Source: a virus. From it: DNA of 22,379 bases. Position numbers and translations under genes: made by a program. The notes under the pieces are model-generated. The model was given only the letters and a program-made list of their open reading frames with translations. It searched no databases and was not told the origin of the DNA. The stretch spans positions 1 through 22,379 of the IMG/VR virus record IMGVR_UViG_3300042475_000473. The stretch is one strand, 5' to 3'. Below are positions 4,900-22,379 of the stretch, in pieces; position 1 is the first letter of the stretch; each line of letters starts with the position of its first letter.

Positions 4900-5070
4900 A
4901 TGTACACCAACGCTCAATACATAGCCTTCAATGGCGTCAACACCAGCATCCGCTGTGACATTGACGGCGTGACCTCGTTCGTGCCGCTCGACCCTGCGAA
5001 CACCGACTACCAGAACCTGCTTCGGCTTCAGGAGGAGGGTGAGATCGTGATTGCCCCTGCTGACGCATGA
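4900..5070 (+). CDS. Small protein following fibre (MYxNAxY family), copy 2
   Basis: 56 residues beginning MYTNAQYIAFNGV, with SFVPLDPANTDYQNLLRL and the ending EEGEIVIAPADA. It is a paralogue of the 59-residue protein at 2754: same MY.NA.Y start, same VPLDPAN.DY core, same .IAP ending, same place right after a RIINGDMRIDQR fibre. The start lies 3 bases after the fibre stop. Its stop overlaps the ATG of the homing endonuclease (ATGA, 5067-5070). A segment resembling its C-terminus reappears at the end of that endonuclease. Function unknown; a fibre-tip or assembly partner is inferred from position. Confidence 0.75.
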   Translation: MYTNAQYIAFNGVNTSIRCDIDGVTSFVPLDPANTDYQNLLRLQEEGEIVIAPADA

Positions 5071-5696
5071 AGAGCAACTTCTACGTTTACGAGCATTGGC
5101 GCCCGGACAGGGGCGAGTGCTTCTACGTCGGCAAAGGTCGAGGCCGCAGGGCCAACATCATGAAGCGCCGCAACAAGCACCACAAAGCCATTCAGGAGAA
5201 GCTGGCTAGGCTCGGAATGTGCGTTGAGGTCAAGATAGTGGGACACGGCCTTTCTGAAGACGAGGCTTTTGAGCTAGAGAAAAAGAGAATTGCTTTTTGG
5301 CGGTCGGAGAACTGCGATCTCGCCAACATGACTGATGGTGGAGAAGGAACCACTGGGCACAAGCCCGTGATAACTTCTGAATGGCGAGCAAAGCTATCTG
5401 CTGCGAAAAAGGGGAAAAGCAACTACAAGCTGGTGATGGCTTCTGCGGCGGCAAAACGCGGCAAGCCGCATACCCCTGAACATCGGGCCGCTATTAGTGC
5501 TGCCGCCAAAGAAAGGTTCAAAGACCCAGCCGTTAGAGAAAAATTCCGTCTATGCTCGGTGGGTAAGATCGTGTCTGAGGAAAGCCGCAAGAAGATGTCC
5601 GACGCTGCAAAGGCAAGGCGCCAAAGAGAGAAGGCCCTGGCTCTGGTAGCGGCTGGTGAGCTTACTATTGCTCCTGCCGATTCTGCTGGGGGATAA
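5067..5696 (+). CDS. GIY-YIG homing endonuclease with NUMOD3 motifs
   Basis: 209 residues. The N-terminal nuclease module (about 5-95) shows YVY at 6-8 and FYVGKG at 19-24 in place of GIY and YIG, basic residues GRGRRA just after, a glutamate in AFELEKKRI (69-71) and LANMTDGGEG with N87, the usual catalytic and metal-binding pattern of this family. Three NUMOD3-type DNA-binding motifs follow: SEWRAKLSAAKKGKS (~104-118), GKPHTPEHRAAISAAAK (~132-148) and GKIVSEESRKKMSDAAK (~166-182). All nuclease residues seem intact, so it is probably active. It is free-standing, overlapping the preceding small gene by 4 bases. The last ~20 residues (ALALVAAGELTIAPADSAGG) do not belong to the endonuclease family and resemble the C-termini of the small proteins at 2754 and 4900. 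G+C is lower than in neighbours (29/60 at 5281-5340). Confidence 0.9.
   Translation: MKSNFYVYEHWRPDRGECFYVGKGRGRRANIMKRRNKHHKAIQEKLARLGMCVEVKIVGHGLSEDEAFELEKKRIAFWRSENCDLANMTDGGEGTTGHKPVITSEWRAKLSAAKKGKSNYKLVMASAAAKRGKPHTPEHRAAISAAAKERFKDPAVREKFRLCSVGKIVSEESRKKMSDAAKARRQREKALALVAAGELTIAPADSAGG
5634..5681 (+). repeat. Captured C-terminal segment of MYxNAxY small protein in endonuclease gene
   Basis: This stretch encodes ALALVAAGELTIAPAD. By eye it matches 9 of 16 residues with the end of the small protein at 4900 and 9 of 16 with that at 2754. At DNA level, 19 of 26 bases match around GGTGAG...ATTGC.CCTGC.GA when compared with 5038-5063. It appears to be a remnant of a target gene fused to the endonuclease. 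Confidence 0.6.
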
Positions 5697-12407: not shown

Positions 12408-13376
12408 ATGGGCGGCAGTCGCGGCGGCGGCCCCACGCAAAGCACCACCTACACCTCCAACCTTCCTGAGTATGCGCGTCCATACTTTGAGCGGATGATG
12501 AGTAGGGCTGAGGGTGAGAGCAATCAGCCCTATGTGAGCTATGGCGGTCAGCGCATTGCTGGCTTTACTCCGGACGTTCAGCAGGGCTTTGGCATCACCC
12601 GCGACATTGCTGCCCGTGGAACACCAGAGGCCGACGTGGCTGGTGGCATCCTGGGCGCGTCTGCAATGCGTGGTCTGGGCGCCAGCGACTACACGGCGGC
12701 CCCAATCCAGCAGCAGGCGTTTGGGCGAGAACAGGCCCAGCAGTACATGTCGCCCTACATGGATGAGGTTCTTGCTCGTCAGAAGTCTGCGGCAATCCGG
12801 GACTTTGATGAGGGCCGTCCGTCGCGCGAGACCCAGGCGATCAAGGCTGGCGCCTTTGGCGGATATCGTTCTGCCATCCAGGAAGGCGTTGCCCAGCGTG
12901 GCCTTGGCGAGCGTCTGTCCGACATTGAGGCGGCTGGCCGACAGAAGGCGTTCGAGAACGCACAGACGCAGTTCGAGCGTGATCGCGCCGCATCTATGCA
13001 GGCCCAGGGGACGACCGAAGCACAGCGTCTTGCTGCCGCTCAGTACGGATTGTCTGGGGCAGGACTTGGCTTGCAGGCTGGTCAGCAGTTTGGCCAGCTT
13101 GGCGCGCTGCGTCAGGGCCTTACGATGCAGCAGGCTCAGGAGCTTCAGAAGCAGGGCGGCGTTCAGCAGCAGCAGGAGCAGCGCGAGCTTGATCTTGCGT
13201 ATCAGGACTTCCTGAACCAGCGCGACTTCGACAAGCAGCAGATCAACTTCATGTCGAGCATCCTGCGTGGCATTCCCGTGCAGCCTCAACAGGTTGTTAA
13301 CCAGTACGCCAATCCCAATCCGCTGGCTCAGTTCGGCGGTCTGGGGATCGCTGGCCTTGGTCTGTTGCGTTCCTAG
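12408..13376 (+). CDS. Putative ejection/internal virion protein (Gln-rich coiled coil)
   Basis: 322 residues. It opens MGGSRGGGPTQSTTYTSNLP and EYARPYFERMMSRAE, then YGGQRIAGFTPDVQQGF, MSPYMDEVLARQKSAAIRD, KAGAFGGYRSAIQEGVAQRG and SDIEAAGRQKAFENAQTQFE. A long Gln/Ala-rich helical region follows (~185-285) and the ending is MSSILRGIPVQPQQ and GGLGIAGLGLL. I recognise this as a common podovirus-type internal or DNA-transfer protein family found beside tail and ejection genes. The extended amphipathic helices fit a protein that unfolds and passes through the tail. The stop is followed after 9 bases (containing GGGGGT) by the next ATG. Confidence 0.75.
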   Translation: MGGSRGGGPTQSTTYTSNLPEYARPYFERMMSRAEGESNQPYVSYGGQRIAGFTPDVQQGFGITRDIAARGTPEADVAGGILGASAMRGLGASDYTAAPIQQQAFGREQAQQYMSPYMDEVLARQKSAAIRDFDEGRPSRETQAIKAGAFGGYRSAIQEGVAQRGLGERLSDIEAAGRQKAFENAQTQFERDRAASMQAQGTTEAQRLAAAQYGLSGAGLGLQAGQQFGQLGALRQGLTMQQAQELQKQGGVQQQQEQRELDLAYQDFLNQRDFDKQQINFMSSILRGIPVQPQQVVNQYANPNPLAQFGGLGIAGLGLLRS

Positions 13377-13385
13377 GGGGTCTAG

Positions 13386-15197
13386 ATGAATCTGCTCAAA
13401 GTCCAGGACGCCCTCAAAAACGCTTCCGACCAGCAGCTTATGGCGCTGATGCAGGCTCCGGATAGCACGGCTCCGTCTTATCTGGTGCTGTCTGAAATCC
13501 GCCGCCGCAAGGACATGCGAGCCAAGCAGGCTCCCGAAGGCCAATCCAATCGCACTGTGGCAGAAGACCTTACTGCCCCACAGGAGCCTGTCGGAATCCA
13601 GGGCCTACAGGGCCAGGACTCGATGGACCCGGACGGCGTTGATGTTGCCGATGGCGGCGTGCCGGGCATGGCCGCTGGTGGGCTGGCGTCTCTACGTCGC
13701 TACCGAGAGGGTGGCGTTGTACGGATGCAGGCTGGCGGGGGCATCGAGACGATGTCTGCCGATCAGCTTCGTCAGCTTCTCGGCCAGATGAGCGACCCTC
13801 GTTTTAGGCCGTCTGGGGTTACTGCCACCCCGGACCAGATTCGCAGCCGCCTCGCAGACCTAGAGCAGCGCCAGGAGGATGTGTTCCTTCAGGCACCGAG
13901 GTCTCGTCTGCGGCAAGACCTTGGTACAATCGGCCAAGCCGTTCATGGCGCCGTTGGGTCTGGCGGTGAACTCATCTCGGGTGCTGGTCGGCTGGCTGCT
14001 GATGTCGGTCGCGCTGCAACCGAGTACGCTCTTGCCCCCGTTGAGCCGCGTTCTCCATTTCCGGAGGGAAGGTTCCCGGAGTCGGAGCCGGTTCGCGGTC
14101 AGTTTCTCGCAGAAGAGAGAATCCCAGACCGCGATGAAGTACGCGGTCCTGACCTTGCCTCTCTGGCTGCCGCCCCAAGGCCGGGGTCTCAGGGACAGAC
14201 TCGGCCCGGCGGAACCACGGCCCAGCCCACCACGACGCAGGGCGGTCAAGGTACGCCGGGCGGCGGCACGCCGGGCATTGAGGGTCTGAGGAATGCCCCT
14301 GCTGCCCTGCCTGAAGGCGGTCAGTTGCCGACGATGGCCGAGCTTATGCGCCAGAATGCGGCCCTCTTCCCTGACGGGATGGGCAGCATTCGAGAACGCA
14401 TGCGTGAGGAGCGCGTTGATCCTGCTGCCCGTCGCAGCGAGGCGGTCAACATGGCTCTGATTGAGGCTGGCCTCCGTATCGCTGGCTCTCGCAACCCCAG
14501 TCTGATTGGCGCGATTGGTGAAGGCGCTCTGCCTGCCGTCCAGTCCTACGGTCAGCAGCTTGGTCAGATTCGTGCCGAGCAGCGGCAGGCTCGTCAGGAC
14601 GATCTCGAACTGGCCAAGCAGGAGACTAACCGCCAGTTTGCGATTGGGCAGATCAGTGCTGCCGAATACCGCAGCCGGATGGACAACATCAACGCGAACA
14701 TCCGGGTCAACGCTCAGGAGCGTGGCGCTAACGCAAGGCTTGCTGCATCTGAGGCGGCTGCCACACGTCGCGCTGCCGATGCTGCTGCCGCCGCCGAGGC
14801 GGCTGATCTTCGTCGCGGCTACGTTTCTCCGGAACGCTGGGCTCGCATGGGTACGGAGGAGCGCGCCGCTGTTGAGCGCAACCGCACCCTTGGCCGTCCG
14901 CTCGACACGTCTGGCGCGTCTTCCGCACTGAACGCGACGCTTCAGGACATCAACAGGATTGCGACGCAGATCGACACTCTTGGTCCGCGTCCGACCAGAA
15001 ACTTTGCTGAGTGGGATCGCAACAACGCATCTCTTCAGCAGCGCCTTCGTGATGCCGAAGCGCGCCGTCGTCAGCTTGAGGACATTGTTGTCTATGGTCG
15101 CCCTCGTGAGGGGGCTGGCGGATCAGCGTCTGGAACTACTAATCTTCCGTCCGGAGCGCGCATTGAGAACGGTAGGTACGTACCGGCTGGGAGCTAA
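13386..15197 (+). CDS. Putative internal virion protein with GGLASLRRYREGG motif
   Basis: 603 residues. The N-terminus (NLLKVQDALKNASDQQLMAL, then APSYLVLSEIRRRKDMRAKQ) is a helical start typical of a phage protein family, followed by AAGGLASLRRYREGGVVRMQ around residues 97-117. Residues ~240-310 are Pro/Gly/Gln-rich and probably flexible (GTTAQPTTTQGGQGTPGGG). From ~350 it is Ala/Arg-rich and helical, with likely coiled coils (AEQRQARQDDLELAKQETNR, and later ARLAASEAAATRRAADAAAA). No catalytic motif is evident. It lies between the Gln-rich ejection protein and the giant polyvalent protein, 3 bases before the latter's ATG, so it is probably part of the same ejected set. Function is inferred from context only. 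Confidence 0.75.
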   Translation: MNLLKVQDALKNASDQQLMALMQAPDSTAPSYLVLSEIRRRKDMRAKQAPEGQSNRTVAEDLTAPQEPVGIQGLQGQDSMDPDGVDVADGGVPGMAAGGLASLRRYREGGVVRMQAGGGIETMSADQLRQLLGQMSDPRFRPSGVTATPDQIRSRLADLEQRQEDVFLQAPRSRLRQDLGTIGQAVHGAVGSGGELISGAGRLAADVGRAATEYALAPVEPRSPFPEGRFPESEPVRGQFLAEERIPDRDEVRGPDLASLAAAPRPGSQGQTRPGGTTAQPTTTQGGQGTPGGGTPGIEGLRNAPAALPEGGQLPTMAELMRQNAALFPDGMGSIRERMREERVDPAARRSEAVNMALIEAGLRIAGSRNPSLIGAIGEGALPAVQSYGQQLGQIRAEQRQARQDDLELAKQETNRQFAIGQISAAEYRSRMDNINANIRVNAQERGANARLAASEAAATRRAADAAAAAEAADLRRGYVSPERWARMGTEERAAVERNRTLGRPLDTSGASSALNATLQDINRIATQIDTLGPRPTRNFAEWDRNNASLQQRLRDAEARRRQLEDIVVYGRPREGAGGSASGTTNLPSGARIENGRYVPAGS

Positions 15198-15200
15198 CTG

Positions 15201-18200
15201 ATGCGGACCATTGATGTCCCCGGCGTCGGGCCGATTCAATTCCCCGACACGATGTCTGATACCCAAATTATCCAGGCAATCGAGCGGGACATCCTTCCTG
15301 GCGTTAGGGGCAGAACTCAAGTTGCCCCCACCATGCCGCTTGATGGCGCTCCTGTCGGCCAGGGTTCCACGATGGAGCCGGTCCCTGAGCGTGGGCTCTT
15401 CGGCACTATCGGCGCTCGTGCCGCTGATGTGGGCGGCTCTCTCGTTTCCGGCGCTGGTAGCGTTGCCACTGGCATTGGCGGTCTAGGCGGCGTCCTTGGC
15501 CTCACTGGCTACGACAACGTTCTAACCCGGCTTGGCCGTCGCGGCGCTGAGTTCGGGGCAGAACTCATGTCGCCCGAGCTTCGTAATCAGCGTCGTGCCC
15601 TGGCTGACGCCATGAAGGAAGCTGAGGAGCGGGGCCTTGCTGCTGAAGCCGGTGCTGCCCTCAGCACGCTGGCGAGCAATCCTAGCCTGCTCTTCTCTAT
15701 GGCGGTCGAGCAAATCCCTGCCTTCGTGCTGAGTGGTGGCGTTGGCCGTGCCGCGACTGCCGTTGGTCAGATTGGCGCTCGTGGCGCCGCTCGTGCTGGT
15801 ACTGCTGCCGTTGATCGTGCCGGTCAGGTCGGCGCTATCGGCACTGCGGCCAGCCTTCAGACGGGCGGCATCGCAGACCAGACCTATCGGGAGGTGATGG
15901 ACCTCCCCGAAGAGACCATCGCCCGCAGCCCCAACTACCAGCAGCTTCTTCGGAGCATGTCGCCTGCCGAGGCGCGTGACGCGATTGCCAATCGTGCCGC
16001 CCGTGAAGCTGCTGCCTTGGGTGGTGGTATCTCCGTTGCCGCCATGACTGCACTACCGAGTGCCGAGAAGGCGCTCTTCACTCGTGGCGTCTCTCAGAGT
16101 GCCGTGCGTCGTGCGCTTGGCGTCGGCGGCGCTGAGGCTGTCTCTGAAGGTGTCGAGGAGGGCGGCGGTCAGTTCGCTCAGAACCTTGCTGTCCAGAGGC
16201 AGGCTGATGCAGAGCGTGATCTTCTTCGTGGTGTCGGTGGTGCTGCTGCTACTGGCGCTGTGCTTGGCGGCGTCATGGGCGCTGGTGCTGGCGCTCTTCA
16301 GCGTGCGCCTCTGCCTCCCTCGACGGAGCCGGGCGCTGGCAACCTGACGCCGGAACTTCAGCAGGCGATCAACGAGTACGTCGCTAACCGCGAGCCTATG
16401 ACTGAGGGGCAGAATCTTCTGCCTCGTGAGCGTCCCGTCGTTGATACGCCGGTCGGCAACCTCACTGTGTCTCAGGCCATCCGCTACTTTGAGCGTCGGT
16501 TCCCTGAGCTTGCCACCCTGGACGATGTTCAGGAGAAGATTCGTGTAGGTCAGACGCTTCTCGCCCAGGAGCAGGAAGGTCGCGCTGCTGGTCGGCAGGG
16601 TGTGGAAGAGGGCCGCTACCGCAGGGAGATTGCTACCAGCCCTGAGACAGAAGAAGCCTTTCGTCTTGCTGAGATTCAGAGACAGGCTGGTCGCCGTGCG
16701 GAAGATGTCATTAGTCGCGTCCCCCTTGAGAGGGAAACTCCATACGCTGCCGGGCGTCGTGCTGAGGCAGAAGAGGCATTTCGCGCCGCTGACATTCAGA
16801 GGCAGACCGGGCGCCGTGCCGAAGAAGTCACTGGCCGCGTTCCCCTTGAGAGGGAGACTCCGTATGCCGGTGGTCGTCGCGCTGAGGCTGAACAAGCATT
16901 CTCTGATGTAGAGCGTCAGCAGAAGCTTGGCTCTGTTCCCAGCGTCAATGTTCTTCGGCGCGATCTTCAAAAGGAAGAGCGCGAGATTCGAGAGCTTACG
17001 AAGGCTCGCGATAAGGCTCAGGTTCGCCTTCGTCAGATCGAGCGTGCGCCTGTTGTTAATGCCGTTGCCCGTGAGGGCGTTCAGGCTGAGATCGACCAGC
17101 TTACCCAGCTTATCGCCGGGCGTGAGCAGATTCGTCGTGACATTGAGGCCCGCATCCCCGAGGTCGAGCGTCAGGTAACGGCACGGGAAAACCTCCAGGC
17201 TGATGCCCAGGGTGCGTTTGATATCGCCCAGGCTGACCGTGAAAGACTTGCGCGGCAGAGGCAGGCTCCCGGCATTGAGATTCCTTCCGGCTCTGGCGTT
17301 CCCGACACAATCCCTCAGCAGACGGACGACACTCGCGCTGGCGCTCCACAGATCACCGGCCAGCGTTACCTCCTGAACCCCGTCTATAACGAGCGTGGTG
17401 AGCTTGAGGGCGGTGAACAGGTTCTCGATATTCTGCCGTCCGATAACTTCGGGAATGTCCTGGCGATTGTTGAGCGCCAGAGAGGCAACATCACCGAGCA
17501 AGTCCCCGTCGAGACGACGATGGACGAGCTTGTTCAGATGCCTGTGCGCGATACCGCACGCATGACGCAGGAAGCCACCGCTGCTGCGGTTGGCCCGGAA
17601 CAGGTTGCCGGTCGTCGTGGTCGTGGGGTTGATCCTCTGGGGCAGGACCTTCAGCCCCGCCGTATGGCGAACCGCCAGGGTCCGGAGGCTTCTGCCCGTG
17701 TGACAGGGGAGGCTCAGGCCGCTCCTGAAGCTGAGGTCAGCGAGGCTGATTCTCGCGCGACCAAGCGCATCGAAGCCCAGAACAGGATCAACAAGCTCTA
17801 CCTAGACAAGCTCAAGGGCATGGGTGCCCAGGGCCGTCTGCTTCGTAACGCGCTGGTGCAGGCCCTGAAGGACCGCACCATGTCGGCGGGTGAAGTGTAC
17901 ACGGCGTTTGTCTCGGCGGATAAGTTTGCTTCTCTCCTTCCTGCCGGTGCGAACCATCGCATCGAGTTCGTGAAGGAGATTCTGCCCACAGCCGAACTTG
18001 CTGAGGCGATCCGCCGCAGCGGTGGTGATCCCACCAAGCCGTTGCAGGGTCTTCGTCAGCGTCCTTCCCCCGAAGGTTTGCCGGGTCTCATCAGGATATC
18101 TCTGGCTCCAGAGATGTTGCCGATGCTTGGCGAGACGGTGGCACACGAAGCCTTCCACGTCCTTCAGGACTACTACGGCAAGTTCGACGCCCAGTTCAAA

Positions 18201-21200
18201 AAGCTGATGGACCAAGGCTTCCGCGATGGCATGTCCATCTCGGACCTTGAGCCGACGATCCGTCGCAAGCTGCAACAGATCGCTTATCCTGGGGCGCGCG
18301 ACGACAAGGGCAGGCAGAGGAGCTATTGGGATTATCTGACGGCCACTGTCCCCGGCACCCTGACTGCCAGGGAGGCACAGGCTTACGCCTTCGGCGCCCT
18401 TGCCGACGCGGCCCGTCGCGGCGCTCCCATGTCTGGGCTGAAGCCTGCCTTTGCTCGCTTCGTTAATGTCATCAAGAACTTCTTCTCGAAGTTTGGCAGC
18501 CAGCTTCGTGGCGATGGATTCCAGACGGTTGAGGAAGTGCTGGGCCGCGTGTCTCGTGGCGATGCTCGTCGCTTTGATGCGATGGCTTCCCCCACTGCTC
18601 GTGACATCGCCACGTCTGGGCCTGAGCTTTCCGCCCGCTCTGAAGGCGGGATGACCGAAGAGCAGTTCGAGGCTTCCGCTCGCGCGACCAACACGTCCGT
18701 TCCTGAGTTCAAGAACTGGTGGAATGGCGGGTGGCGCGGGGAGGGTGTTCGGGTTGGGCCTAGCACCGCCGCAAATCCTGACGGCTCGCCTGTGAACTTC
18801 TATCACGGCACTCAGAGAGGCTTCACTAGGTTTGGTGAAGCTCGCAGCGGCGCCTATGGTCTCAATGAAGGCCCGTTCTTCTTCTCGCCTGATCCCGACT
18901 TTGCTGGCGACTATGCCATCTCAGAGATGTTTGCTGGCGGCGACAATCGGCGCGCCACAGATGGTCAGCGCATGCTGCCCGTGTATCTGTCTGTTCAGAA
19001 TACCTTCAACGCGACAGACCCCCGTCTTCGTCAGGATTTGCTGGACTACGTTGATACCGGCCTGGACGATGGCACGATTGACTGGCGTGATATCGTTGGG
19101 AACAGGACTCGCGCCAGCTATCAGGATCAAATCGACCGGGGCGAACTCACTGAGTACAAGGCCGCTGGTCGTGCATTCAGGATGTTCAAGCTTTTCCTTG
19201 AGAAGGACACGGATAACTGGCCAGCTTTGGAGACCAAGGCTGCCCAGAAGTACATCCGCGACAACGACTTCGACAGCTTCTATGTGAGGGAACTGGGCAC
19301 CGAGAACATCGCTGTCTATGACCCACGGCAGATCAAGTCGATCTTCAACAAGTTCGAGACTGGGGCAGCAACCGAGCCTGAGTTCTCGGCGCGCTCTCCC
19401 CTTGCGGCTGATCCTGCCTTTGCTGTCATGCGAGACAAGCTGACTGGCAAGGAGATGGACAAGCCCAACGTCTTTGCTGACGGGCTTCGTAGGTTTGTTG
19501 GAGCCCTGCCGGGCGAGAAGCTTTCTTCTGCCCTCGTGCGGACCTCCGTCAATCGCGCTGGTGCAGGGTGGATGATTGACACCCTGTCTAAGCAAAAGGG
19601 CATGACCGTCAGGAATGTCGGTCAGGCTATGGAGATCGCGCTCAACAACAGCGGTCGCGTTCAGATGTACCTGAACCACGGCCCACTGGCCTACGATCCG
19701 AAGACTGGCGACGTGACTGTGCGCGATGACGTGCCGGGCCTCATCGACGCCATCAAGGGTAAGCTCAACGTTGCAGACAAGAGGGAGGCGCAAGCCTATC
19801 TCGTCGCTCTTCGTGAGCGTGATCTTCGTAAGGCAGGGAAGAAGGGCTTCTTCAACCTGACGGACAAGGAGATGAACTCCATCATCTCCAAGGCTGAGGC
19901 GGCGCATCCTGAGTGGAAGCAGATGGCTGCTGACATTCAGCGCATCAACAAGGCGCTGCTCGACTTTGCCGTAGCCACTGGAACTCTTGATCGTGCCAAG
20001 GCTGATCAGCTTGGCAGCATGTTCTACACGCCGTTCTACCGGCAGGCCGACGAAGATGTGAAGGACGATTCAGACGCGGTGGTTGGGCCTCGTCTGTCTC
20101 AGAGCCTCACTCGCGTTAAGAGCGCCTTCGATGTCAGCGTGAAGGGCGGTGAGAATCCGCTTGGCGATCTGTTCGAGAACATGATCCGCAATGCCGACGT
20201 GATCATGAAGGCTGGCATGAAGAACGTCGCCATGAGCAAGGCGGCTGAGGCATTGCAGGATGTTGGCCTTGGTCGCCCCGTGAAGACGCGCGAGACGGGC
20301 AAGACGATCACCTACCGTGTTAATGGGCAGGATAAGCACTTCGAGGTTGATGACCCTGCCTTCTACATCGCTCTTGCTGGTGCGCCGCGTGAGTTCACGA
20401 ACGGCATCTATCAGACGATGGCGACGATGGCGGGCTTCTTCCGCGACATGGTGACGCTGGCGCCGAGCTTCATGCTGGCGAACCTGTGGCGTGGTAAAAT
20501 CATGGCGTATGTGCAGGAGGGAACTCCCCTCTATGCAAATACGTTCGATGGTCTGAAGCAGGCCCTTCAGTCTAGCGCATCCTACAAGGCTATCGCCGCA
20601 CAGACTGGCTTCGGCGGCTACACCTACGGCATGGGCGAGCGTGATGCTGCTGCCGCCTTCGAGCGTGAGATTGCCGGGCTTGGCTACGGCCCTGGCGGTC
20701 TGATGCGTCGTACCTTCGATGCGCTTCAGAAGGCGAGTGAGGCCACGGAAATGGCCGAGCGCATCAAGATTTATGAGCGCATGAAAGCCCAGGGGATGAG
20801 CGACAAGGACGCTGCATTCCAGGCTTATCTCCTTGCCCCGTTCTCTCGCAGGGGCATGGGCGGCGGCTGGATCGGCTCTACCGTCAACTGGCTCGTGCCT
20901 CTTGTGCCGTTCTTGAACGCCAAGATTCAGGGCATGTATCGCCTCATCGAAAACGAGAAGGGCGACACGCAGAAGATTTGGACGCTTGGTCTTCCCAAGC
21001 AGATGCTGCTGCGTGGCCTTGTGGTCATGGGCCTGTCGCTGGCACTTTTTGCCAAGAACATAGGGGATGAGCCCGAGCGTTGGGACAACGAGAACCCTGA
21101 TCTCAAGTTCCGATACGACATCATCTATCTGCCAAACGACAACAGGATTCTCCTGCCCCGAGCGTTCGAGGTGGGCTCCGTCTTTGGTGCGCTGCCCGTC

Positions 21201-21977
21201 TTTATCCTCGACGCCATCCGTCGCAATGACAGCAGGGACTTGAGCAAGGCGCTGGCCGATCTCGGCACCTCGACCTTCTTCTTCAATCCGATCCCCCAAG
21301 CTGCTGTGCCTATGCTGGGTGCCTTCACGAACTACGACTTCTTCCGTAGTCGCTCGCTTGAGACGGCTGGTGATGCGAGCAAGCTCCCGCAAGAGCGCGT
21401 CAACCGCAGCACGAGCGCCGTTGCCAAGGCTATTGGTGAGACGTTCGGCGTCAGCCCGATCCGGGTTCAGTATGTGCTGGAGGGATACTCGGGCACGATT
21501 GGCTCGTCTGTTTTGGCTGGCTTCGACAGCATCCTTGCTTCCTTCGGGATGATCCCCGGCAAGCCTGCTGGCGCCTTTGGTGATCCGATGAGCATGCCCG
21601 CCATCGCGGCTGGTCTGACTGGCGTGAGCCGCTTCTATCGGAGCGACGACCAGAGCGCGACCCGCTTCATTGGCGACTTCTACAAGATCAAGGAGATGAC
21701 CGATCAGCTTGTGCGGTCTCAGAACATGGCTATGGAGACACGCGATCTTGATCGGTTGGCAGAACTCCGTGGTGATGCGGGCCTGCCTCTGCGTCTGAGG
21801 CCGATGGTCAATCAAGCCTCGACGCAGATCACTGAAATCAACAAGCGCATTGCCAGGATTGAACGCAGCGACCTAACCTCTGTGGAGAAGACTGAAGCCC
21901 TTCGTCCTCTGAGGGAGCAGCGTGATCGTGTGGCAAGGCGCGTTGTTGAGAGGGCAAGGGATATCGGAGCCTACTAG
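15201..21977 (+). CDS. Giant polyvalent internal virion protein: Zn-peptidase, ADP-ribosyltransferase-like and LPD38-like domains
   Basis: 2258 residues. The start MRTIDVPGVGPIQFPDTMSD is typical of large phage proteins of this class. Residues ~60-390 are Gly/Ala-rich with zipper-like stretches (GGAAATGAVLGGVMGAGAGA); ~485-564 hold two 40-residue tandem repeats; ~583-690 form a charged coiled coil. Residues ~965-1130 carry a gluzincin-like peptidase: HEAFH at 982-986 with E1058 in AREAQAYAFG as possible third zinc ligand, then FVNVIKNFFSKFG. Residues ~1190-1385 resemble the ADP-ribosyltransferase of polyvalent proteins: NFYHGTQRGF with H1202, GPFFFSPDPDFAGDYA, RELGTENIAVYDPRQIKS with E1364 or E1368. 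The last ~850 residues resemble LPD38 (large polyvalent protein-associated), with hydrophobic segments WLVPLVPFLNAKIQG (~1896) and LLRGLVVMGLSLALF (~1937). Polyvalent proteins are thought to be injected with phage DNA. The domain names are from memory of the families. Confidence 0.85.
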   Translation: MRTIDVPGVGPIQFPDTMSDTQIIQAIERDILPGVRGRTQVAPTMPLDGAPVGQGSTMEPVPERGLFGTIGARAADVGGSLVSGAGSVATGIGGLGGVLGLTGYDNVLTRLGRRGAEFGAELMSPELRNQRRALADAMKEAEERGLAAEAGAALSTLASNPSLLFSMAVEQIPAFVLSGGVGRAATAVGQIGARGAARAGTAAVDRAGQVGAIGTAASLQTGGIADQTYREVMDLPEETIARSPNYQQLLRSMSPAEARDAIANRAAREAAALGGGISVAAMTALPSAEKALFTRGVSQSAVRRALGVGGAEAVSEGVEEGGGQFAQNLAVQRQADAERDLLRGVGGAAATGAVLGGVMGAGAGALQRAPLPPSTEPGAGNLTPELQQAINEYVANREPMTEGQNLLPRERPVVDTPVGNLTVSQAIRYFERRFPELATLDDVQEKIRVGQTLLAQEQEGRAAGRQGVEEGRYRREIATSPETEEAFRLAEIQRQAGRRAEDVISRVPLERETPYAAGRRAEAEEAFRAADIQRQTGRRAEEVTGRVPLERETPYAGGRRAEAEQAFSDVERQQKLGSVPSVNVLRRDLQKEEREIRELTKARDKAQVRLRQIERAPVVNAVAREGVQAEIDQLTQLIAGREQIRRDIEARIPEVERQVTARENLQADAQGAFDIAQADRERLARQRQAPGIEIPSGSGVPDTIPQQTDDTRAGAPQITGQRYLLNPVYNERGELEGGEQVLDILPSDNFGNVLAIVERQRGNITEQVPVETTMDELVQMPVRDTARMTQEATAAAVGPEQVAGRRGRGVDPLGQDLQPRRMANRQGPEASARVTGEAQAAPEAEVSEADSRATKRIEAQNRINKLYLDKLKGMGAQGRLLRNALVQALKDRTMSAGEVYTAFVSADKFASLLPAGANHRIEFVKEILPTAELAEAIRRSGGDPTKPLQGLRQRPSPEGLPGLIRISLAPEMLPMLGETVAHEAFHVLQDYYGKFDAQFKKLMDQGFRDGMSISDLEPTIRRKLQQIAYPGARDDKGRQRSYWDYLTATVPGTLTAREAQAYAFGALADAARRGAPMSGLKPAFARFVNVIKNFFSKFGSQLRGDGFQTVEEVLGRVSRGDARRFDAMASPTARDIATSGPELSARSEGGMTEEQFEASARATNTSVPEFKNWWNGGWRGEGVRVGPSTAANPDGSPVNFYHGTQRGFTRFGEARSGAYGLNEGPFFFSPDPDFAGDYAISEMFAGGDNRRATDGQRMLPVYLSVQNTFNATDPRLRQDLLDYVDTGLDDGTIDWRDIVGNRTRASYQDQIDRGELTEYKAAGRAFRMFKLFLEKDTDNWPALETKAAQKYIRDNDFDSFYVRELGTENIAVYDPRQIKSIFNKFETGAATEPEFSARSPLAADPAFAVMRDKLTGKEMDKPNVFADGLRRFVGALPGEKLSSALVRTSVNRAGAGWMIDTLSKQKGMTVRNVGQAMEIALNNSGRVQMYLNHGPLAYDPKTGDVTVRDDVPGLIDAIKGKLNVADKREAQAYLVALRERDLRKAGKKGFFNLTDKEMNSIISKAEAAHPEWKQMAADIQRINKALLDFAVATGTLDRAKADQLGSMFYTPFYRQADEDVKDDSDAVVGPRLSQSLTRVKSAFDVSVKGGENPLGDLFENMIRNADVIMKAGMKNVAMSKAAEALQDVGLGRPVKTRETGKTITYRVNGQDKHFEVDDPAFYIALAGAPREFTNGIYQTMATMAGFFRDMVTLAPSFMLANLWRGKIMAYVQEGTPLYANTFDGLKQALQSSASYKAIAAQTGFGGYTYGMGERDAAAAFEREIAGLGYGPGGLMRRTFDALQKASEATEMAERIKIYERMKAQGMSDKDAAFQAYLLAPFSRRGMGGGWIGSTVNWLVPLVPFLNAKIQGMYRLIENEKGDTQKIWTLGLPKQMLLRGLVVMGLSLALFAKNIGDEPERWDNENPDLKFRYDIIYLPNDNRILLPRAFEVGSVFGALPVFILDAIRRNDSRDLSKALADLGTSTFFFNPIPQAAVPMLGAFTNYDFFRSRSLETAGDASKLPQERVNRSTSAVAKAIGETFGVSPIRVQYVLEGYSGTIGSSVLAGFDSILASFGMIPGKPAGAFGDPMSMPAIAAGLTGVSRFYRSDDQSATRFIGDFYKIKEMTDQLVRSQNMAMETRDLDRLAELRGDAGLPLRLRPMVNQASTQITEINKRIARIERSDLTSVEKTEALRPLREQRDRVARRVVERARDIGAY
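16653..16892 (+). repeat. Two 120-bp tandem repeats (40 residues each) in the giant gene
   Basis: In-frame units at 16653-16772 and 16773-16892, with a partial third unit starting at 16893. Each encodes EAFR.A.IQRQ.GRRAE.V followed by .RVPLERETPYA.GRRAEAE. The two full units differ at only a few residues, so this duplication looks recent. Confidence 0.85.
18621..19397 (+). repeat. Duplicated PE(L/F)SARS linker flanking the ART-like domain
   Basis: CCTGAG followed by codons for L/F-S-A-R-S occurs at 18621-18641 (residues 1141-1147) and 19377-19397 (residues 1393-1399), 252 codons apart, just before and just after the ADP-ribosyltransferase-like domain. The codons differ at third positions while the peptide is conserved. 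Confidence 0.65.
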
Positions 21978-21989
21978 GAAGTAGGCTCC
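21966..21989. terminator. Bidirectional terminator-type hairpin containing both convergent stop codons
   Basis: Bases 21966-21975 (GGAGCCTACT) pair perfectly with 21980-21989 (AGTAGGCTCC), leaving a 4-base loop AGGA. The stem is 10 bp with six G-C pairs. Rightward it is followed by only a weak T-rich stretch (TTGTT), so efficiency is uncertain. The rightward stop TAG (21975-21977) and the leftward stop (CTA on the plus strand, 21974-21976) both fall at the top of the hairpin, exactly where the two transcription units converge. Confidence 0.7.
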
Positions 21990-22279
21990 TTGTTGGCGAT
22001 CTCCTCCATAATGGAGGCATAGCCAGCGATATCAACGTGGCTGTCTTGGTGGCCCGGCGAGTGCATCAGCCGGGCTACCTTCACCAGCAGCATCATCATG
22101 GCCGCGTCGTAGGCGTTGATCTCGGGACTGTCGTAGTTGGGGTTCTTGCGGCTCTCCACCATCCAGTAGGTCCAGAGGGCAGCAATTCTCTTGTGGTTCT
22201 CCGTCTTGTCGCCGTAGTCCTCGGCGCGCTGACCGCCAACGAGTTCGGCTGCGTGAAGCAGCATATCAGAAGCTTTCAT
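21974..22279 (-). CDS. DUF6378-family phage protein
   Basis: 101 residues from the ATG at 22279 (MKASDMLLHAAELVGGQRAE). This start has a good Shine-Dalgarno (AAGGAGAGG) about 7 bases upstream on the minus strand; a longer in-frame form starting at 22360 would lack family support at its N-terminus. The pattern GGQRAEDYGDKTENHKRIAA, LWTYWM, INAYDAAMMMLLVKVARLMH and HQDSHVDIAGYASIMEEI is characteristic of DUF6378, a small all-helical domain common in phages and without a known function. It runs opposite to the structural genes, so it belongs to another (probably early or middle) unit. It overlaps the upstream charged gene by 14 bases. Confidence 0.85.
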   Translation of the reverse strand: MKASDMLLHAAELVGGQRAEDYGDKTENHKRIAALWTYWMVESRKNPNYDSPEINAYDAAMMMLLVKVARLMHSPGHQDSHVDIAGYASIMEEIANKEPTS

Positions 22280-22379
22280 TCTCAAACCTCTCCTTGAGTT
22301 CCTTGAAGCGTTCACGGGCCTGTCTGTTATCTTTGAGTTCTGCCCTACTCTCCACCTCACAGAATGCTTTGAGCCCTTC
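22266..22379 (-). CDS. 3' end of a small charged protein (partial, leftward)
   Basis: Read leftward from the window edge, one frame stays open for 37 codons to a TGA at 22268-22266. It encodes a charged helical tail including RAELKDNRQARERFKELKER and ending FENESF. The 14-base overlap with the DUF6378 start, in another frame, fits a tightly packed operon, and the DUF6378 Shine-Dalgarno lies inside this reading frame. The start is beyond the window and the family cannot be recognised. The main doubt is its short visible length. Confidence 0.55.
   Translation of the reverse strand, partial: EGLKAFCEVESRAELKDNRQARERFKELKERFENESF

What the first reader, a model, noticed from the sequence alone, without database searches (positions are those of the whole stretch)
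15201..21977. 2258-residue polyvalent virion protein combining a Zn-peptidase and an ART-like domain
One third of the window is a single gene with a zipper-rich N-terminus, tandem repeats, a coiled coil, a peptidase motif, an ADP-ribosyltransferase-like domain and an LPD38-like C-terminus. Polyvalent proteins of phages and conjugative elements are thought to enter the cell with the DNA and disarm host defences, and few have been tested. This arrangement, at the end of an ejection block, is a good candidate for an injected multi-effector.
Basis: partly seen in the sequence, partly recalled or inferred. Interest (0 to 1): 0.75.

Follow-up and report, generated by a model that had tools for sequence, protein, structure and literature searches.

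The report
Phage giant protein with module-boundary motifs
This phage gene encodes a 2,258-residue protein, probably ejected into the bacterium with the DNA, whose swappable enzyme modules are separated by a repeated five-residue motif that looks like a cutting site for the protease built into the same protein.

Summary
One 2258-aa ORF (15201-21977) closes a block of virion/ejection genes and carries ART-PolyVal (Pfam 2.5e-15), an HEAFHxxQD...E zincin-type motif and LPD38 (1.8e-21). It is a phage-type polyvalent protein, a kind described by Iyer et al. 2017. (1) Residues 171-376 are homologous to the membrane-inserting N-terminal region of the phage N4 virion RNA polymerase (36% identity; PDB E 2e-10), but no polymerase follows. 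(2) The ART is an exchangeable cassette: relatives with up to 95%-identical flanks carry other cassettes, or none, in its place. (3) The exchange points are copies of a pentapeptide, [EQ]-phi-S-A-R (four here). Variants of [EQ]-phi-S-x-R flank the zincin at about -150 and +155 residues and precede the C-terminal domain in most HEAFH-zincin giants sampled. At least two copies occur in 14/18 lineages with this zincin and 2/24 without (p=1e-5); a held-out test agreed in 3 of 7 lineages. I infer that the zincin cuts at these sites and releases the modules, making the protein a self-processing polyprotein. Cleavage and injection are not shown, and no solved structure matched the zincin or C-terminal folds.

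The parts
15201..21977 (+). Giant polyvalent protein gene, 2258 aa
   Evidence: Intact ORF; 100% identical in L002, L003, L004
15711..16328 (+). Residues 171-376: segment homologous to the N-terminal region of N4 virion RNA polymerase
   Evidence: phmmer against PDB E 2e-10; phrog_2206; blastp 36% over 170 aa, E 2e-16
16398..17684 (+). Linker: Glu/Arg/Gln-rich repeats and likely coiled coil; tandem repeat of 120 bp at 16642-16900
   Evidence: Tandem Repeats Finder; composition
17685..17699 (+). Boundary motif 1, EASAR (residues 829-833)
17700..18623 (+). Zincin-type module; HEAFHVLQD at 18144-18170, candidate third ligand E1058 at 18372-18374
   Evidence: Invariant H, E, H, D, E in alignments; AF2 secondary structure as described for zincins; no Pfam or PDB match
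18624..18638 (+). Boundary motif 2, ELSAR (1142-1146), zincin/ART joint and left exchange point
18669..18683 (+). Boundary motif 3, EASAR (1157-1161)
18684..19379 (+). ART-PolyVal cassette (YHGT 1201, GDYA 1236, YDPRQIKS 1373)
   Evidence: Pfam E 2.5e-15; motif positions; replaced or absent in L005, L006, L007, L029
19380..19394 (+). Boundary motif 4, EFSAR (1394-1398), ART/C-terminal joint and right exchange point
19395..21974 (+). C-terminal domain of about 840 aa, mostly helical; Pfam LPD38 (21075-21536) is only part of it
   Evidence: AF2 pLDDT 75.5, pTM 0.70; 69 viral model matches at E<=1e-3, TM to 0.88; no PDB match
12408..13376 (+). Upstream DNA ejection protein
   Evidence: phrog_4287 E 6.3e-21
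13386..15197 (+). Upstream 603-aa protein, candidate second ejection protein
   Evidence: Position only; no family match

Best explanation
The gene encodes a virion-carried polyprotein that is ejected with the DNA. The N-terminal segment, homologous to that of the N4 virion RNA polymerase, probably attaches to or crosses the inner membrane. A central HEAFHxxQD zincin cuts the chain, in cis or between copies, at the [EQ]-phi-S-A-R motifs that separate the zincin, ART and C-terminal modules, freeing the ART cassette to modify host proteins, while the 840-aa LPD38-type C-terminal domain serves packaging or ejection. Because the joints are standard, cassettes can be exchanged between phages. Shown here by sequence: the domains, the motif, its position and specificity, and the cassette exchange. 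Inferred: cleavage, its timing (in the head or after entry), injection and the ART target.
For: [FYAL]SAR is among the top two self-repeated 4-mers in L005, L007, L008 and L033. Synonymous codons differ between copies, so the peptide is what is kept. In 24 lineages [FY]SAR occurs 12 times against 1.0 in shuffles, and other orders of S, A, R at most once. Exchange points: P0001/L005, P0001/L006, P0001/L029 (right side), L008/L033 and the left side of L043/L046 diverge at the motif. The same modules sit between motifs in different relatives. Specificity: 14 of 15 hits in six phage contigs are in the giant ORF, 14% of the residues scanned. A repeat search without prior pattern found clade-specific variants QFSGR, YSGR, EASxR, E.SIR in other zincin giants. 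The general motif ranks 1st of 120 element permutations (53 against median 9) and flanks the zincin in 12/20 (upstream) and 11/20 (downstream) lineages against 2.2 and 1.1 by chance. At least two copies: 14/18 lineages with the zincin, 2/24 without, p=1e-5. Held-out lineages: correct flanks in 3 of 7 (0.5 and 0.2 expected); [EQ][FY]S[AG]R 7 against 0.12. N4-type N-terminus; isolated N4 NTD goes into membrane nanodiscs (PMC12633501). Ejection synteny.
Against: No cleavage has been observed. N4 vRNAP, which also has a zincin, is packaged uncut (PMC5512222), though it lacks this motif. The zincin had no Pfam match, no PDB sequence or fold match and no profile match to the N4 C-terminal region. 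Four HEAFH-zincin lineages have fewer than two motif copies, and 4 of 7 held-out lineages lack correct flanks. The generalised pattern was refined on some of the sequences it was tested on, and the zincin giants are related, so p-values overstate independence.
Confidence: 0.5

Rival explanations
1. The motif is only a preferred joint: a short linker at which cassettes are recombined or tolerated, and the protein works uncut, like N4 vRNAP as beads on a string.
For: Exchange points coincide with the motif; N4 vRNAP is packaged unprocessed and is described as beads on a string.
Against: A generic linker would not need S-x-R with E/Q at a fixed spacing, nor co-occur with one zincin class; copies differ at synonymous sites, so DNA homology alone does not maintain them.
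Confidence: 0.25
2. The motif is a real cleavage site, but for another protease (a phage prohead protease during maturation, or a host protease after entry).
For: Phage P1 annotates its co-injected head protein DarA as proteolytically processed during head maturation; Arg at the end of the motif would suit trypsin-like proteases (general knowledge).
Against: The motif is almost confined to the giant gene, not other virion ORFs, and tracks the in-chain zincin. Some contigs are incomplete, so capsid genes may be missing.
Confidence: 0.15
3. The zincin is itself an effector that cuts host proteins, so that zincin and ART are two injected weapons; the boundary motif is incidental.
For: Iyer et al. 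list host-directed action of MPTases as a possibility; the two uses are not exclusive.
Against: The zincin is kept while the cassettes next to it change, and it is itself bracketed by the motif.
Confidence: 0.1

Closest known systems
Phage-type polyvalent proteins (Iyer et al. 2017, PMC5512222)
   Same: Giant multidomain protein encoded next to virion genes, with MPTase, ART and LPD38 domains; MPTase autoprocessing was already proposed there
   Different: No recurring boundary motif was found in that paper by text search; here candidate cut sites are named and cassette exchange is resolved to the residue
N4 virion RNA polymerase gp50 (Schitoviridae; PMC12633501)
   Same: Homologous N-terminal segment; giant last gene after ejection proteins; an HExxH domain before a large helical C-terminal domain
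   Different: No RNA polymerase; C-terminal domain and zincin not matched by fold or profile; N4 has no [EQ]-phi-SxR motif
Roseovarius Plymouth podovirus 1 vRNAP with fused ART (cited in PMC5512222)
   Same: An ART carried on an N4-type injected giant
   Different: That protein keeps the polymerase; not compared by sequence here
P1 DarB/DdrB/DarA
   Same: Internal virion proteins co-injected against restriction; some are proteolytically processed
   Different: No boundary motif repeats and a different HExxH type in DdrB

Membership tests
Phage-type polyvalent proteins | Two or more unrelated enzymatic or effector domains in one giant chain | tested here: met
   ART-PolyVal plus HEAFH zincin-type module plus LPD38
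Phage-type polyvalent proteins | Encoded among virion genes | tested here: met
   Follows tail, collar and DNA ejection genes
Phage-type polyvalent proteins | Packaged in the virion and delivered into the host | not testable with these tools
   No virion proteomics; inferred from synteny and the N4-type N-terminus
ART-PolyVal (PF18760) | Profile match above gathering score | tested here: met
   57.9 bits against 31.2
ART-PolyVal (PF18760) | ART fold and catalytic activity | tested here: inconclusive
   AF2 model of this part is low-confidence; activity not testable
LPD38 (PF18857) | Profile match above gathering score | tested here: met
   77.5 bits against 27
Zincin-like metallopeptidase (polyvalent MPTase) | HExxH with downstream Glu and the helix/three-strand/helix/helix order | tested here: met
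   Invariant residues; secondary structure of the model
Zincin-like metallopeptidase (polyvalent MPTase) | Fold or profile similarity to known zincins | tested here: inconclusive
   No Pfam, PDB sequence or Foldseek match; N4 region not matched
N4-like virion RNA polymerase | Homologous N-terminal region | tested here: met
   E 2e-10 in PDB search, 36% identity
N4-like virion RNA polymerase | Single-chain RNA polymerase domain | tested here: not met
   Matches cover only the NTD; no hit to N4 residues 1007-2101

The most novel reading that the evidence does not exclude
A large group of tailed phages builds its injected effectors as self-cutting polyproteins: a dedicated zincin recognises [EQ]-phi-S-x-R at the module joints, the site varies by clade with its protease, and the standard joints allow rapid exchange of anti-host cargo.
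Probability: 0.42. Interest if true: 0.82.

Novelty: new variant of a known kind. Interest (0 to 1): 0.63.

Why it matters
It has been open since 2017 whether the metallopeptidase domains of polyvalent proteins process the proteins that carry them. The motif gives exact predicted cut sites and an obvious active-site control, so the question becomes testable with one recombinant protein. If true, it also offers a simple rule for cutting many unannotated giant phage proteins into effector modules, and shows how injected cargo is exchanged among phages on a shared scaffold whose N-terminal part is common with the N4 virion RNA polymerase.

Tried and rejected
Shared C-terminal fold with N4 vRNAP C2: not found (Foldseek PDB; hhalign). 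Zincin profile against the N4 C-terminal region: no match. Deeper ART family by scan: few relatives. Cellular relatives by genome-contig scan: none. DNA near-match in phage records: none. I first took the C-terminal domain of L118/L119 for an unrelated one; Pfam showed it is also LPD38. DNA-level repeat as the reason for the motif: rejected because synonymous codons differ. NCBIfam gave nothing.

Full report
Observation. The ORF at 15201-21977 encodes 2258 residues without interruption and recurs at 100% identity in IMG/VR loci L002, L003 and L004, so it is unlikely to be an assembly accident. The window is itself an IMG/VR record. L004 lies in a 48-kb contig that matches the window over 17 kb, with terminase, portal, an Erf-like protein and a GroES-like gene. 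Pfam finds ART-PolyVal and LPD38 well above their cut-offs. The upstream genes encode tail fibres, a collar protein, a virion structural protein and a DNA ejection protein. In annotated phages the LPD38 giants also follow small virion genes; in Vibrio phage VvAW1 one of these is named 'DNA ejection'.

N-terminal region. Residues 171-376 match N4 virion RNA polymerase residues 253-448. A direct comparison gives 36% identity over 170 residues (E 2e-16), and several relatives match as well. In N4 this region lies at and after predicted membrane-spanning helices, and the isolated NTD goes into membrane nanodiscs (PMC12633501). No polymerase domain follows here, so this is not an N4-like vRNAP; it shares that segment only.

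C-terminal domain. The last 840 residues are the most conserved part. The AlphaFold2 model (pLDDT 75.5, pTM 0.70) has no PDB counterpart, but matches 69 viral models at E<=0.001 with TM-scores up to 0.88, in giant proteins some of which are named for RelA/SpoT, methylase or lysozyme domains. Pfam LPD38 (189 positions) covers only part of this domain. Similarity to the N4 C2 domain was tested and not found.

Zincin and ART. HEAFHVLQD (982-990) and E1058 are conserved in the zincin alignments. The HExxHxxxD form agrees with the MPTase type that Iyer et al. describe as widespread in phage polyvalent proteins. Model residues 35-245 of the 591-residue fragment are confident and show helix, three strands, HExxH helix and a later helix with the glutamate, the order given in that paper. 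No solved structure was matched. The ART part was modelled poorly, so its assignment rests on Pfam and on the YHGT, GDYA and YDPRQIKS motifs.

Cassette exchange. At the DNA level L005 aligns with the window on both sides, at 70-74% (15438-18595) and 88.6% (19386-22379), but not across the ART. L005 and L007 carry a roughly 550-aa cassette plus a 140-aa module there, L006 a DUF7178 cassette plus the same 140-aa module, and L029 nothing. In another clade L008 has an ART where the otherwise 95-98% identical L033 has an M78-like zincin and a further module. The ART with its flanking motifs also occurs in L046, whose C-terminal domain is only 45% identical.

The motif. In each of these cases the sequences part at or within a few residues of a copy of [EQ]-[FYAL]-S-A-R. 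Copies use different synonymous codons. [FYAL]SAR is among the two strongest self-repeats in L005, L007, L008 and L033. Across 24 lineages [FY]SAR occurs 12 times against 1.0 in shuffles, with permuted controls at one or none. In six phage contigs 14 of 15 occurrences are in the giant gene, which is 14% of the residues scanned. A repeat search without prior pattern in other zincin giants returned QFSGR/QYSGR (L060), YSGR (L094), EASxR (L067, L068, L071), E.SIR (L078) and EES.RG (L073), all fitting [EQ]-phi-S-x-R or close to it. This general pattern is first of 120 orderings of its own elements and sits near -150 and +155 from the HExxH. It occurs at least twice in 14 of 18 lineages with the HEAFH zincin and 2 of 24 without (p=1e-5). 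A test on lineages fetched afterwards, with pattern and windows fixed, gave correct flanks in 3 of 7, against 0.5 and 0.2 expected; its permutation control was weaker there (rank 2 of 120 on few counts). In the AF2 model the second copy (model 313-315) is called as a short strand at pLDDT about 77; this would suit a substrate-like strand, but its partner could not be read.

Interpretation. The simplest account is that the constant zincin cuts at the joints. Iyer et al. proposed autoprocessing in general terms; a text search of their paper found no such site described, and literature searches in the open library found none. That library lacks most subscription journals, so novelty is provisional. 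The main alternatives are an uncut beads-on-a-string protein with preferred recombination joints, or cleavage by another protease. Caveats: the general pattern was refined on part of the data, lineages are related, several zincin lineages lack it, and there is no biochemical evidence.

Verdict. The protein is a new member of the polyvalent class. The boundary motif tied to the zincin and the residue-exact cassette exchange are the new and testable points.

Noticed in passing
window 15201-15302; L005 9851 onward; L007 9851 onward: The first 30-40 residues are themselves exchangeable: FPDxMSxxQI type in the window, L008, L009 and L029; a doubled GYSDxDIxxYL type in L005 and L007. They may be packaging tags.
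   Followed up: no
L118 6670-15417: A relative carries a GHKL/HSP90-type ATPase module between the zincin and an ART, again bounded by the motif.
   Followed up: partly
L005 15170-15592, L006, L007, L047, L119: A 140-150 aa module without a Pfam name moves among distant giants, bounded by the motif.
   Followed up: partly
L006 and L098 (PF23802 matches): DUF7178 occurs as a cassette in these giants, which suggests an injected role for this unnamed family.
   Followed up: no
window 21974-22378 (-): DUF6378 gene, convergent with and overlapping the end of the giant gene by 4 bases.
   Followed up: no
window 5067-5696: Homing endonuclease-like gene between tail-fibre genes and the collar region.
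   Followed up: no
L011 2099-2479 (-) and 9839-11224 (+): GroES-like co-chaperonin gene next to the portal gene, and a gene matching a PHROG named porphyrin biosynthesis, in the matching 48-kb contig.
   Followed up: no
L110 5357-14560: A different giant ORF (over 3068 aa, open at the locus end) with several ART-like YHGT motifs in one chain.
   Followed up: no
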